Shown: positions 496-6,302 of the stretch, one piece after another
Position numbering within the stretch: position 1 is the first letter of the stretch
Layout of the letters: each line of letters opens with the position of its first letter
DNA from: Oscillospiraceae bacterium
Lineage (GTDB): Bacteria; Bacillota_A; Clostridia; Oscillospirales; Ruminococcaceae
Length of the DNA stretch: 6,302 nt
Reading direction: 5' to 3'
Assembly: GCA_017414145.1 (NCBI GenBank)
Contig: JAFPQL010000009.1
Location: forward strand, 1 to 6,302
Notes under the pieces: model-generated
Told to the model about the DNA's origin: nothing
Databases searched by the model: none
What the model saw: the letters and a program-made list of their open reading frames with translations, nothing else
Position numbers and translations under genes: made by a program

Positions 496-545
496 ACAAA
501 CAGAAATCGCCCGCCCCTGACAAAATCGTACAGTCAAGGACGAGC
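496..545 (-). terminator. Intrinsic terminator of the T-box
   Basis: GCTCGTCCTTGAC (545-533) pairs over 13 positions, including G-U pairs, with GTCAGGGGCGGGC (521-509) across an 11-nt loop. The U-rich tail GATTTCTGTTTGT (508-496) follows. The 5' arm overlaps the antiterminator pairing (GCTCG and CCTT), so the two structures exclude each other, as expected for a transcriptional T-box. Confidence 0.85.
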
Positions 546-770
546 GGTGCTCGCGGTGCCACCTTGATTCACCCGCTTTGCCGAGACCGGCAGCAGATGC
601 ACTTTTCCGAGATACTTCCATATCTCCGGCGTCTGACGCGCGCCGACTGCGTCGCAGCTTTGACTGCGCCCTCCGCGGGCCATTGGGTGATCTCGTTTCC
701 GCCCGGCTCTCAGCCTGCCCGGACTCTCTGTGGGGCATAATCACCTTTTCTCTCCGCATCAACGGTTTCC
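496..770 (-). ncRNA. T-box riboswitch (tRNA-Trp responsive) leader of trpB
   Basis: This untranslated leader senses uncharged tRNA-Trp and permits transcription of trpB when tryptophan is short. The T-box core AGGTGGCACCGCG lies at 564-552 and starts the antiterminator, where CGAGC-acc-GCTCG and AAGG/CCTT pair. In Stem I, GCGG (757-754) pairs with CCGC (678-675) and GGTGAT (745-740) pairs with ATCACC (691-686). The loop between these helices on the 3' side holds TGG at 682-680, the right place for the specifier, which reads Trp and matches the gene controlled. The distal part of Stem I has TCCG/CGGA and GGCT/AGCC. A Stem III-like hairpin, GAGATA-tggaag-TATCTC, lies further down. The terminator is listed separately. 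The transcript start near 770 is inferred from the promoter. Confidence 0.92.
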
Positions 771-776
771 AATGCC

Positions 777-4135: not shown

Positions 4136-4178
4136 ATTCTCCGGCTGCTGCCGGCGATGTCCCGCCCTTTCTGAACTT

Positions 4179-4207
4179 ATTATAGCACAGTGCGCGGGAA
4201 AAAAACA
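4179..4207 (-). promoter_or_regulatory. Promoter of the SDR-ADH operon, good -10 with poor -35
   Basis: A perfect -10 TATAAT lies at 4184-4179. At 17 bp the -35 position (4207-4202) reads TGTTTT, a poor match to TTGACA. The predicted start near 4172 gives a leader of about 245 nt. A weak -35 overlapped by an inverted repeat is typical of promoters that need an activator, fitting the AraC-type gene upstream (inference). Confidence 0.65.
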
Positions 4208-4242
4208 TAGGATATATTCGCATCTTTTTAACCTATCCTATG
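4206..4242. promoter_or_regulatory. AT-rich inverted repeat: candidate AraC-type operator and/or regulator-gene terminator
   Basis: CATAGGATA (4206-4214) and TATCCTATG (4234-4242) are a perfect 9-bp inverted repeat with a 19-bp spacer. The arms are 28 bp apart centre to centre, placing them at about -38 and -66 relative to the predicted operon start, as for an activator overlapping the -35. On the minus strand the second arm is followed by seven T (4205-4199), so the same sequence could also terminate transcription from the AraC-type gene, though a stem with three G-C pairs is weak. Both roles may apply. Confidence 0.55.
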
Positions 4243-4269
4243 ATTTCAGAGTGCCGCACCGAAGAACAG

Positions 4270-4420
4270 CGCCTCATTCCGAACGCCTGACGCATCATTT
4301 CGCATTCAAATTCAGAGGCGAGATCCAGCTGTGCCATGATTCCCCCCGCGGCGGGCTTTAGGAGTTGGATGCCGGCACTGCCGGCCCGCATTCCGATCTC
4401 CCGACGCATCATTTCGCATT
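4270..4420 (+). repeat. Diverged member of the composite intergenic repeat family, downstream of the AraC-type gene
   Basis: This segment shares blocks with the repeat array at 5283-6302. TTCAGAGGCGA and AGCTGTGCCATGATT (around 4310-4341), CCCGCGGCGGGCTTTAG (4345-4361) and the hairpin GCCGGC-act-GCCGGC (4371-4385) correspond in order to blocks at 6163-6237. Instead of the GATC-rich palindrome it is bounded by an 18-bp direct repeat, GACGCATCATTTCGCATT, at 4289-4306 and 4403-4420, each preceded by CATTCCGA. The second copy ends in the stop codon of the AraC-type gene. It fills most of the regulator-SDR intergenic region. Confidence 0.7.
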
Positions 4421-5193
4421 TAATCCTGCACGCCCCGCCCGCGGCGGCGCCATTGCTGCGGCGAAAGTCCCATCTGCTTCTTGAACTGGCGCGAGAAATG
4501 CACCCCGCTGGAGTAGCCGCAGGCGTAGGCAATTTCCTCGACGGTCATTGCGGGATTGCTGAGATACTGCTGCGCGGACTCCATGCGGCTCTGGATGACA
4601 TCACCCATGCAGGTGACGCCGAACGCCTTTTTATAGAGCGCGTGCAGGTACGGCATACTGATATTGAGCATCCCCGCCATATATCTGAGCGTCCAGTTCC
4701 GCTGTGGCTGCGCGTAGATCTGGCGGCGCAGATCCAGCAGCTCACGGTAATGCGGGATGCCGGCGGGGTCGGTGCTGCGCTCCGCAAAGACCTCGGAGAG
4801 CATGGCACGGATCAGCAGTGCCGTCGTCTGGGCATTGCCGCCGCGGTAATAGCAGTCGGCAAGGAGCTGGAAATACTGCGGCAGATCGACCTCGTCGCCG
4901 AATGTGATCAGCGTGTTGAACCGGATTGCAGTCTCGGAATCCAGCGGCTCGGTACAGTCAAAGAGCATCCAGTCGTTGACATAGTCGCCGCCCGCCGCAC
5001 CGTAATGCAGCGGCGTATTCCGGTCGTAGAGGATGAATGTGCCCGGCTCGACGGTCTGGACAGTCTCCCCGATGCGAAAGATCGCCGGCGTTTTGACATA
5101 GAGCATCAGATATGCCTCAAAGCCCTGCGGCAGATCAAAGACAAAGCCCGCATCGTGCCGGCAGGAGCAGCCCATTCTCTGAATTTCAAACAT
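4420..5193 (-). CDS. AraC-family transcriptional regulator, 257 aa
   Basis: This is a DNA-binding regulator. The N-terminal part, about residues 15-100, resembles the beta-rich AraC ligand-binding (cupin-like) domain (for example GTFILYDRNTPLHY, 51-64). The C-terminal part, about 157-250, holds the two AraC helix-turn-helix motifs: WTLRYMAGMLNISMPYLHAL (167-186) and VEEIAYACGYSSGVHFSRQF (218-237), followed by MGLSPQQWRR (241-250). GYSSGVHFSRQFKKQMGLS is the family signature. The length is normal. The ATG at 5193 follows a purine-rich site (AAAGGGGAAAGGG). The stop codon TAA lies at the edge of a repeat element. The most likely target is the co-directional SDR-ADH operon downstream, whose promoter has a weak -35 and an inverted repeat. 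The effector is unknown. Confidence 0.93.
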   Translation of the reverse strand: MFEIQRMGCSCRHDAGFVFDLPQGFEAYLMLYVKTPAIFRIGETVQTVEPGTFILYDRNTPLHYGAAGGDYVNDWMLFDCTEPLDSETAIRFNTLITFGDEVDLPQYFQLLADCYYRGGNAQTTALLIRAMLSEVFAERSTDPAGIPHYRELLDLRRQIYAQPQRNWTLRYMAGMLNISMPYLHALYKKAFGVTCMGDVIQSRMESAQQYLSNPAMTVEEIAYACGYSSGVHFSRQFKKQMGLSPQQWRRRGRGVQD

Positions 5194-5277: not shown

Positions 5278-5282
5278 GAGGA

Positions 5283-5350
5283 TGCGGGAGATTTCAGCGG
5301 AATCATGGTACAGCCGGACTGCGCCCATGAATGCGAATGCGGAATGAAAT
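5283..5350 (+). repeat. Partial spacer module at the left end of the repeat array
   Basis: This stretch contains GCGGAATCATGGTACAGCCG and GACTGCGCC (about 5297-5325), matching the spacer block at 5416-5447 and, in reverse complement, 4313-4341 and 6170-6199. It is followed by CATGAATGCGAATGCGGAAT. It joins directly to palindrome A. Its left edge lies next to the promoter of the AraC-type gene. Confidence 0.6.
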
Positions 5351-5402
5351 GTCAGGTGATCAATTTTCCTAATATGATCATCTGATCATCTGATCACCTG
5401 AC
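5351..5402 (+). repeat. Palindromic repeat copy A (52 bp)
   Basis: It starts GTCAGGTGATCA and ends TGATCACCTGAC, a perfect 12-bp inverted terminal repeat. The interior is ATTTTCCTAAT followed by two TGATCATC units. It differs from the other copies by AATATG where they have AATGTG. It contains four GATC sites. Hairpin GGGG-agt-CCCC starts at the next base. Confidence 0.9.
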
Positions 5403-5474
5403 GGGGAGTCCCCGCAGGCGAAATCAGGGCACAGCCGGACTTCGCCTCTGAAATAGAATGAGGAGTTATTCTGC
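5403..5474 (+). repeat. Structured spacer module between copies A and B (72 bp)
   Basis: Three stem-loops follow one another: GGGG-AGT-CCCC (5403-5413), closed by C5402-G5414; AGGCGAA (5416-5422) with TTCGCCT (5441-5447) around an 18-nt loop containing ACAGCCGGAC; and AGAAT-gaggagtt-ATTCT (5456-5473). The same order occurs in the other spacers with changed but still paired stems. It lacks the GCCCG-ccg-CGGGC block found in the B-C and D-E spacers. Confidence 0.75.
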
Positions 5475-5518
5475 GTCAGGTGATCAATTTTCCTAATGTG
5501 ATCATCTGATCACCTGAC
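5475..5518 (+). repeat. Palindromic repeat copy B (44 bp)
   Basis: It has the same 12-bp ends as copy A but only one TGATCATC unit instead of two, so it is exactly 8 bp shorter. It contains three GATC sites. It is preceded by GAATGAGGAGTTATTCTGC, as is copy C. Confidence 0.9.
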
Positions 5519-5614
5519 GGGCAGTGCCCGCTGCCAATTCCTAAAGCCCGCCGCGGGCGGAATCGGGGACACTGCCGGACTTCGCCCCCGAAATAGAATG
5601 AGGAGTTATTCTGC
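5519..5614 (+). repeat. Structured spacer module between copies B and C (96 bp)
   Basis: Hairpin GGGC-AGT-GCCC (5519-5529), closed by C5518-G5530, matches the position of GGGG-AGT-CCCC in the A-B spacer with a swapped base pair. GCCCG-CCG-CGGGC (5546-5558) follows and overlaps the alternative helix GGGCGGA / TTCGCCC (5555-5561 with 5581-5587), the counterpart of AGGCGAA / TTCGCCT. The spacer ends in the same GAATGAGGAGTTATTCTGC as the A-B spacer. Confidence 0.75.
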
Positions 5615-5666
5615 GTCAGGTGATCAATTTTCCTAATGTGATCATCTGATCATCTGATCATCTGAC
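5615..5666 (+). repeat. Palindromic repeat copy C (52 bp)
   Basis: It begins GTCAGGTGATCAATTTTCC and carries three consecutive TGATCATC units, the last replacing the usual TGATCACC, so the right arm ends TGATCATCTGAC with one mismatch to the left arm. It contains four GATC sites. It is the last forward copy and lies 61 bp beyond the 3' end of the zinc-ribbon gene. Confidence 0.9.
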
Positions 5667-5727
5667 GGTTGTTCTCTGCCGCATTCCTGACTTTGCTTTG
5701 TGTTTGCAGGCAGCGTGCGCTCAGTCA

Positions 5728-5955
5728 TCAGCGGCCGGCATCTGCTTTGCCGCTGACATCTATCACAATCTTTTTGCAGTCCGGACAGAAAAACACCGGA
5801 CAGGCGTGCGGGGAGATGAGATTCTCCGTGATGATGAAATCGGCTCCGGCTGCGATCGGGAAGGGAAATTTTTTCTTCTGATCGGAGGAAACAATCCGTT
5901 CCTTGCTTTGCAGCCATCCGGATTGCATTTCGTGCTGACAGTACGGACATTTCAT
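5728..5955 (-). CDS. Small zinc-ribbon protein, DUF6487/PF20097-like, 75 aa
   Basis: This small protein starts MKCPYCQHEM and has two CPxC knuckles: C3-P-Y-C6 near the N terminus and C57-P-D-C60 near the C terminus. Together they form a likely four-cysteine zinc site; C52 is an extra cysteine. The layout (CPYC..M..G.. then ..FFCPDCKKIVID) resembles the PF20097/DUF6487 family of about 75-80 residue proteins of unknown function. I recognise this from memory and have not searched. The start ATG at 5955 follows AAAGGAG with 7-nt spacing, so it is a real translated gene. I see no convincing promoter upstream and no classical terminator downstream. The gene is enclosed by repeat copy C on one side and the oppositely oriented copy D on the other. 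No function can be given. Confidence 0.82.
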   Translation of the reverse strand: MKCPYCQHEMQSGWLQSKERIVSSDQKKKFPFPIAAGADFIITENLISPHACPVFFCPDCKKIVIDVSGKADAGR

Positions 5956-6061
5956 GGCGAGGCTCCTTTCATGGGTCAGAAAACCGTTTCGATTCTTGGA
6001 TGTTTTGGCAGATTGTTCTGTCGTGGGAAAGTACGATTGTTTTTTGATTTCACCCGCAGTG

Positions 6062-6113
6062 GTCAGGTGATCAGATGATCAGATGATCACATTAGGAAAA
6101 TTGATCACCTGAC
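6062..6113 (-). repeat. Palindromic repeat copy D (52 bp, reverse orientation)
   Basis: Read on the minus strand it starts GTCAGGTGATCAATTTTCC and carries two TGATCATC units, ending TGATCACCTGAC. It matches copy A except for the AATGTG variant. It contains four GATC sites. It lies about 107 bp upstream of the zinc-ribbon start codon. Confidence 0.9.
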
Positions 6114-6237
6114 AAGGAACAACTCCTCATTCCTCGTTTCTAACTGCTAACTTTGCACTCGTATTCAGAGGTGAATTGCGGCTGTGTCATGTTTTCGCCC
6201 GCGGCGGGCTTTAGATCAATGCCGGCGTGGGCTCCCC
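6114..6237 (-). repeat. Structured spacer module between copies D and E (124 bp)
   Basis: On the plus strand the blocks appear in reverse order compared with 5403-5614. GGAA..AACTCCTC..TTCC (6116-6132) matches AGAAT..ATTCT. GGTGAA (6170-6175) pairs with TTCGCC (6194-6199) around a loop containing GGCTGTG. GCCCG-CGG-CGGGC (6197-6209) and TTTAG follow, then GGGCTCCCC next to copy E, a degenerate form of the GGGG-act-CCCC hairpin. An extra stretch with CTAACTGCTAACT (6140-6152) is found only here. Confidence 0.7.
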
Positions 6238-6289
6238 GTCAGGTGATCAGATGATCAGATGATCACATTAGGAAAATTGATCACCTGAC
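6238..6289 (-). repeat. Palindromic repeat copy E (52 bp, reverse orientation)
   Basis: It is identical to copy D by eye, with two TGATCATC units and four GATC sites. It is followed by GCAGAATAACTCC (6290-6302), the reverse complement of the block that precedes copies B and C. The array therefore continues past the right edge of the window. Confidence 0.9.
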
Positions 6290-6302
6290 GCAGAATAACT
6301 CC

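What the first reader, a model, noticed from the sequence alone, without database searches (positions are those of the whole stretch)
5283..6302. Composite structured intergenic repeat family: GATC-rich palindromes alternating with related hairpin spacers
Seen directly: five palindromes (A 5351-5402, B 5475-5518, C 5615-5666, D 6062-6113, E 6238-6289) share 12-bp ends GTCAGGTGATCA / TGATCACCTGAC and an ATTTTCCTAAT interior. The spacers are also related in fixed block order, and a diverged relative without the palindrome lies at 4270-4420. No transposase or cas gene is present. The modularity suggests a non-autonomous element resembling BIME/MITE families that spreads with an unlinked enzyme. 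I cannot match it to a named family.
Basis: partly seen in the sequence, partly recalled or inferred. Interest (0 to 1): 0.8.

Follow-up and report, generated by a model that had tools for sequence, protein, structure and literature searches.

The report
Mosaic hairpin repeats in rumen Ruminococcus
Between the genes of an uncultured gut bacterium related to Ruminococcus lies a patchwork of short hairpin-forming repeats; a diverged, scattered form occurs in a sister species, so it looks like a new family of small dispersed repeats whose way of spreading is not known.

Summary
In detail: five near-identical palindromes (19 of the window's 20 TGATCA sites) alternate with related spacers, far beyond chance. 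The window is a 6302-base contig of an uncultured Ruminococcus relative; no whole genome is held for it. Homology to the closest relative found, L001, stops at base 5282, where the array begins, and the palindrome-less relative (about 4247-4442) is also missing there. Of 30 genomes of that genus only G049 carries the palindrome: six copies on three contigs, with two compensatory pair changes at the stem base. Spacer modules are wider: a GC-palindrome block matches 14 of 30 genomes and a GAACAACTCC heptad module occurs 115 times in G036. No Rfam, phage or plasmid match. Best reading: REP-like repeats in a NIME-like mosaic, copied as modules and amplified locally. The mover is unknown: Y1 (TnpA_REP-type) genes are in 3 of 30 genomes and IS110-type genes above cut-off in 7 of 30; G049 and G036 have neither. 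A new family of a known kind; moderate interest.

The parts
5283..5350 (+). Spacer before A; carries the AATCATGG..CAGCCGGACT..GAA core only
   Evidence: Begins exactly where homology to L001 ends at 5282; alignment
5351..5402 (+). Palindrome A, 52 nt, 12-bp ends
5403..5474 (+). Spacer A-B, 72 nt: short GC palindrome, core block, purine-rich tract; lacks CTAAAGCCCGCC
5475..5518 (+). Palindrome B, 44 nt, one TGATCATC unit fewer
5519..5614 (+). Spacer B-C, 96 nt: GC palindrome, CTAAAGCCCGCC block, core block, purine-rich tract
   Evidence: matches in 14 of 30 genus genomes, nearly all to parts of its first 45 nt
5615..5666 (+). Palindrome C, 52 nt, one G-T pair in the stem
5731..5955 (-). DUF6487 gene (75 aa) between the two oppositely oriented arrays
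   Evidence: PF20097, E 1.2e-16; relatives in 8 of 30 genus genomes
6062..6113 (-). Palindrome D, inverted relative to A-C
6114..6237 (-). Spacer E-D, 124 nt; includes the heptad module GAACAACTCCTCATTCCT at 6117-6134
   Evidence: module pattern found in 3 of 30 genus genomes
6238..6289 (-). Palindrome E, inverted relative to A-C; contig ends 13 nt later inside the next unit
4247..4442 (-). Diverged relative without palindrome; contains a 38-nt direct repeat 114 nt apart; holds the stop codon of the AraC-type gene
   Evidence: 31 nt in the same place in L001

Best explanation
A composite array of non-autonomous, hairpin-forming intergenic repeats: a new REP-like family laid out like the neisserial intergenic mosaic elements. 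Shown: near-identical palindromes alternate with related spacer modules; the array and the palindrome-less relative have no counterpart at the same places in the closest relative found; the palindrome has dispersed, diverged copies in one sister genome; its pairing is kept while two stem pairs change; spacer modules occur apart from the palindrome in other genomes of the genus. Inferred: modules or short runs of modules are copied into intergenic DNA through a single-stranded hairpin by an enzyme acting in trans that has not been identified. They are then multiplied in place by tandem duplication and by recombination between copies, which would also explain the opposed arrays round the DUF6487 gene and the unit-number change in B. 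The array most likely has no fixed function in the cell.
For: Array and statistics. Homology to L001 ends at 5282 and is interrupted at 4247-4442. BLAST of array and relative against the first 80 fetched loci: no hit at E 1e-3. G049: seven matches = six palindromes plus one sub-piece, on C67, C92, C95, near SufBD, SpoIID and aminotransferase genes; the same two-palindrome unit on C67 and C92. Covariation 0.147 against 0.082 in shuffles, 0 of 500 as high; slid structures at most 0.034. Modules elsewhere: 14 of 30, 115 + 10 + 1 copies in 3 of 30.
Against: Copy number in the own genome is unknown. No enzyme found; only Y1 and IS110 families were searched. L001 is another species, so gain here and loss there are not separated. 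Covariation rests on two pairs and two groups of sequences: the counts of pairs with a double change and of further pair types are not above shuffles (442 and 498 of 500 reach them), and the outermost pair is unpaired in 4 of 9 copies. Only one of 30 genus genomes has the palindrome.
Confidence: 0.6

Rival explanations
1. Miniature elements (MITEs) of an ordinary DDE or other transposase encoded elsewhere in the genome, with the 12-bp palindrome ends as its recognition ends.
For: 12-bp inverted ends, small size, non-coding, dispersed in G049.
Against: No target-site duplication by eye round A-E or the G049 copies; the ends differ between the two species; other transposase families were not searched.
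Confidence: 0.12
2. RNA elements at transcript ends: the palindromes act as terminators or mRNA stabilisers and are kept for that.
For: Stable RNA hairpins (-19.3 to -22.6 kcal/mol in the window copies folded); in G049 the nearest Pfam-named genes have the palindrome on their 3' side.
Against: No terminator-like site at the palindromes and counts at shuffle level (1 found, mean 1.2). In the window, A-C lie upstream of the AraC-type gene and D-E upstream of DUF6487. Multiplication in tandem is not explained.
Confidence: 0.12
3. Operators: clustered TGATCA boxes bound by a regulator or DNA methylase and multiplied near the genes it controls.
For: Three or four TGATCA boxes per copy at 8-bp steps, kept in G049.
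Against: G049 copies lie beside unrelated genes; stem letters outside the boxes change in pairs, which a double-strand box does not require. No regulator was looked for.
Confidence: 0.1
4. Misassembly: the opposed arrays round DUF6487 were put together wrongly from one repeat.
For: The contig ends inside a repeat unit at 6302; contig of metagenomic type with no genome held.
Against: The copies differ from each other and the family occurs in another held genome. Only order and orientation could be wrong.
Confidence: 0.03

Closest known systems
Neisserial intergenic mosaic elements, dRS3 + RS (PMC3898611, passages read)
   Same: Short palindromes alternate with 30-160 bp repeat blocks in intergenic arrays of 200 bp and more
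   Different: Palindrome is 44-52 nt with GATC boxes, not ATTCCC(N8)GGGAAT; host is a clostridium; no phage integrase link tested
REP/BIME with TnpA_REP (RAYT) (PMC8266576, passages)
   Same: Intergenic palindromes of about 20-50 nt, clustered, some pairs in opposite orientation
   Different: No GTAG tag; no Y1 transposase found in G049
CGTC-tagged REPs (PMC3733652, abstract, passages, section 15)
   Same: No dedicated transposase known; window copies are preceded so that the left end reads CGTC (B, C, E) or TGTC (A, D)
   Different: GTC is inside the stem here, stem 12 bp instead of 8-9, no 4-5 nt loop; the left end is not kept in most G049 copies
Heptameric repeats of cyanobacteria and xanthomonads (PMC4692102, passages)
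   Same: 7-nt period, intergenic, many loci (heptad module in G036)
   Different: Unit near CACTCCT after a fixed GAACAACTCC start; different phylum

Membership tests
REP/BIME mobilised by RAYT | Palindrome preceded by a conserved GTAG tetranucleotide | tested here: not met
   None of A-E or the seven G049 contexts shows GTAG next to the stem
REP/BIME mobilised by RAYT | TnpA_REP (Y1) gene in the genome | tested here: not met
   PF01797 in 3 of 30 genus genomes, not in G049; own genome not held, and draft genomes can miss genes
REP/BIME mobilised by RAYT | Many intergenic copies per genome | tested here: inconclusive
   5 in the window, 6 in G049; draft assemblies; own genome not held
CGTC-tagged REP | Unpaired CGTC at one end, stem 8-9 bp, loop 4-5 nt | tested here: not met
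   GTC is paired, stem 12 bp, inner region 20-28 nt with its own hairpins
NIME | Palindromes alternating with 30-160 bp repeat blocks in intergenic arrays | tested here: met
   Spacers of 72, 96 and 124 nt, aligned blocks
NIME | dRS3 palindrome ATTCCC(N8)GGGAAT | tested here: not met
   The palindromes read GTCAGGTGATCA..TGATCACCTGAC
MITE | Terminal inverted repeats with target-site duplication | tested here: not met
   12-bp inverted ends present; no flanking duplication seen by eye
MITE | Cognate transposase with the same ends | not tested
   Only Y1 and IS110 families were searched
CRISPR | Unrelated spacers of near-constant length next to cas genes | tested here: not met
   Spacers are related and of unequal length; none of six ORFs is Cas
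Rfam families | Match at or above gathering score | tested here: not met
   in the array only E 0.46 and 0.97 hits far below gathering

The most novel reading that the evidence does not exclude
The genus carries a shared construction kit of intergenic modules (GATC Y-hairpin, GC palindrome with CTAAAG tail, GAACAACTCC heptad tract) that spread and recombine at recurring junctions by a process that uses neither TnpA_REP nor an IS110 recombinase, possibly a single-strand, replication-borne copying mechanism.
Probability: 0.2. Interest if true: 0.65.

Novelty: new member of a known kind. Interest (0 to 1): 0.4.

Why it matters
REP-like repeats are best documented in proteobacteria, and a mover is established only for the GTAG class. 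A clostridial family with exchangeable modules, in genomes (G049, G036) where neither TnpA_REP nor IS110 genes were found, gives a natural test of whether such repeats can spread by another route. It also suggests that assemblies of rumen Ruminococcus relatives may break at these arrays, as this contig does.

Tried and rejected
Rfam: nothing at gathering score in the window; at a loose threshold the array gave two chance-level hits, E 0.46 (over palindrome D) and 0.97. Phage and plasmid records: no match. Viral contigs, two patterns: none. Core pattern GGTGATCAATTTTCCTAATNTGATCA in genome contigs (GTDB release 220 species genomes): none. The array's 321-base part in 29 genomes reached through loci: 2 of 29 matched, spacer only. 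Pattern GGTGATCAN{10,40}TGATCACC: 13 of 396 family genomes, 14 places; the listed sequences lack the ATTTTCCTAAT core, so I take them as unrelated. The reversed-pattern control gave 0, which does not by itself support 'chance'; G049 was not among the genomes listed. DUF6487 as passenger: relatives in 8 of 30 genomes; their surroundings were not examined. Promoter and terminator scan: shuffle level. PADLOC for two window ORFs: none. A regular expression for the GC module was too narrow; its counts are not used. Heptad pattern in 148 family genomes: only G036, the centre itself. Literature (open-licence library only): searches returned no paper; two and one, seen as listings only and off the subject by title; one search gave 71 papers, of which I saw 8 titles, none on such repeats by title or abstract start. 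Not run: structure prediction, covariance models, transposase families other than Y1 and IS110.

Full report
What the window is. The protein cluster of its own alcohol dehydrogenase has 6302 as its longest contig, so the window is a whole contig; no whole genome is held for it. Six ORFs were tested with Pfam: a PALP enzyme (trpB-like, name recalled), an ORF of 178 aa without match, an iron-containing alcohol dehydrogenase, an NAD epimerase, an AraC-type regulator and a 75-aa DUF6487 protein. The best relatives by the dehydrogenase are uncultured Oscillospiraceae/Ruminococcus; L001 (genome G001, yak rumen) has 89% amino-acid identity.

The observation. A to C run one way, D and E the other, on either side of DUF6487. 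Four of five have perfect 12-bp ends; C has one change; B lacks one 8-nt unit. Perfect 12-bp inverted repeats of this spacing occur 0.015 times per shuffled window on average (200 shuffles); six overlapping hits are seen, in four palindromes. TGATCA occurs 20 times against 1.0 expected, 19 in the palindromes. Folded as DNA, A, B, D and E beat all 200 shuffles and 4 of 200 match C; A, C, D and E form a 12-bp stem with two small inner hairpins (Y shape), B one inner hairpin. With RNA parameters the same stem forms in A, B, C and both strands of D (-19.3 to -22.6 kcal/mol), but only one inner hairpin at most is predicted, so the Y shape is a DNA-model result.

The spacers. The stretch before A, the spacers A-B, B-C, E-D and the relative at 4264-4440 align with one block order: short GC palindrome, CTAAAGCCCGCCGCGGGCG, a core like AATCATGGCACAGCCGGACTTCGCCTCTGAA, and a purine-rich tract starting GAATG. 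The CTAAAG block is missing from A-B and before A. Spacers A-B and B-C fold modestly better than shuffles (6 and 4 of 200 as good); E-D does not (134 of 200). Recent local duplication is plain: 95% over 91 nt between the B and C units, 99% over 67 nt between C and inverted E.

Missing counterparts. Against L001, homology upstream of the AraC-type gene runs to window 5282 and stops where the array begins. L001 has other ORFs next to this gene (they look like ylxM and ffh, names recalled, not searched), not DUF6487. Window 4247-4442 faces 31 nt in L001; the stop codon of the window's AraC-type gene, at 4420-4422, lies in this extra DNA. BLAST of the array and the relative against the first 80 fetched loci gave no hit at E 1e-3. 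These are comparisons between species, so gain here and loss there are not separated.

Relatives of the palindrome. Of 30 genomes of the genus (G001 included), one, G049, matches. A search with the G049 version hits only G049 again: seven matches, one a sub-piece, so six palindromes, one of them short, on contigs C67, C92 and C95. A further partial copy on C95 was seen by eye. Four neighbouring ORFs were tested: SufBD, SpoIID, class I/II aminotransferase, and one without match. The C92 copy abuts the SpoIID gene. The same two-palindrome unit, with spacers differing at 2 of 16 positions, stands on C67 and C92. A broader pattern in 396 family genomes matched 13, with unrelated-looking sequences.

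Kept structure. On nine copies (A, C, D, E and five of G049; B and the short and partial G049 copies left out because they lack units) two of the 12 outer pairs change on both sides between the species while pairing holds: 96.7% of cells paired (1 of 500 shuffles as high), covariation 0.147 against 0.082 (0 of 500), slid structures at most 0.034. Against: the number of pairs with a double change (2; 442 of 500 shuffles reach it) and of further pair types (3; 498 of 500) is not raised, the sequences fall in two related groups, and the outermost pair fails in 4 of 9. It supports copying or selection by structure but does not prove it.

The modules are wider than the palindrome. The B-C spacer matches 14 of 30 genus genomes at E 0.01, nearly all to parts of its first 45 nt (candidates scored were capped in some genomes). 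The heptad module GAACAAYTCCTCAYTYCT occurs 115 times in G036, 10 in G049, once in G044, and not in the other 27; the reversed control gave 0. In 350 kb of G036 chosen for hits, 55 copies begin tracts with a 7-nt period; 16 of 55 overlap an ORF of at least 120 aa although such ORFs cover 86% of the DNA, and there is no clear preference for gene orientation. In 148 family genomes only G036 itself matched. The window array is thus one mosaic among several kinds in this genus, made of parts that also occur apart.

The mover. Y1 genes are in 3 of 30 genomes, G053, G038 and G050; G053 also has five spacer-block matches, the other two none. None was found in G049, G036, G032, G054, G003 or G037. IS110-type genes match in 11 of 30 genomes, 7 above cut-off; none in G049, G036, G032, G054, but present in G003 and G031, which carry the spacer block. 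Controls rang in 5 and 4 of 14 named genomes. Draft genomes can miss genes and other enzyme classes were not searched.

Comparison. The layout is closest to the neisserial mosaic elements (PMC3898611, passages). As palindromes they are REP-like but fail the GTAG/RAYT definition (PMC8266576, passages) and the CGTC definition (PMC3733652, abstract, passages, section 15); that paper also mentions REP-like families without tags. The heptads recall heptameric repeats of cyanobacteria and xanthomonads (PMC4692102, passages). Nothing on such repeats in Ruminococcus turned up in the searches made, in a library that lacks most subscription journals.

Verdict. Observation confirmed. Interpretation partly supported: a real, composite, hairpin-forming repeat family, not found in the databases searched, of a known kind, with dispersal shown in a sister species and the mover unidentified.

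Noticed in passing
window 533-771, - strand: T-box leader (RF00230), 75.8 bits, E 1.1e-16, below the gathering score of 93, upstream of the PALP (trpB-like) gene.
   Followed up: partly
window about 4164-4246: Stretch conserved in L001, L017, L002 and L003, with an inverted repeat CATAGGATA/TATCCTATG at 4206-4242 (read by eye); no Rfam match. Operator or terminator not decided.
   Followed up: partly
G036, loci L204-L223: At least 115 heptad-repeat tracts begin with GAACAACTCCTCACT; STRR-like repeats in a Ruminococcus relative.
   Followed up: partly
L162 1-141: Another dispersed intergenic repeat of about 141 bp, many copies in G049, G001, G035 and others.
   Followed up: no
L086 (G003:C29 about 36067-36617): Tandem array of GCGGGCAGTGCCCGC-type palindromes, matches spaced 145 and 31 nt in turn, a 176-nt period.
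   Followed up: no
window 5283-5670 and 6062-6302: G+C is 0.51 and 0.47 against 0.58 for the window.
   Followed up: no
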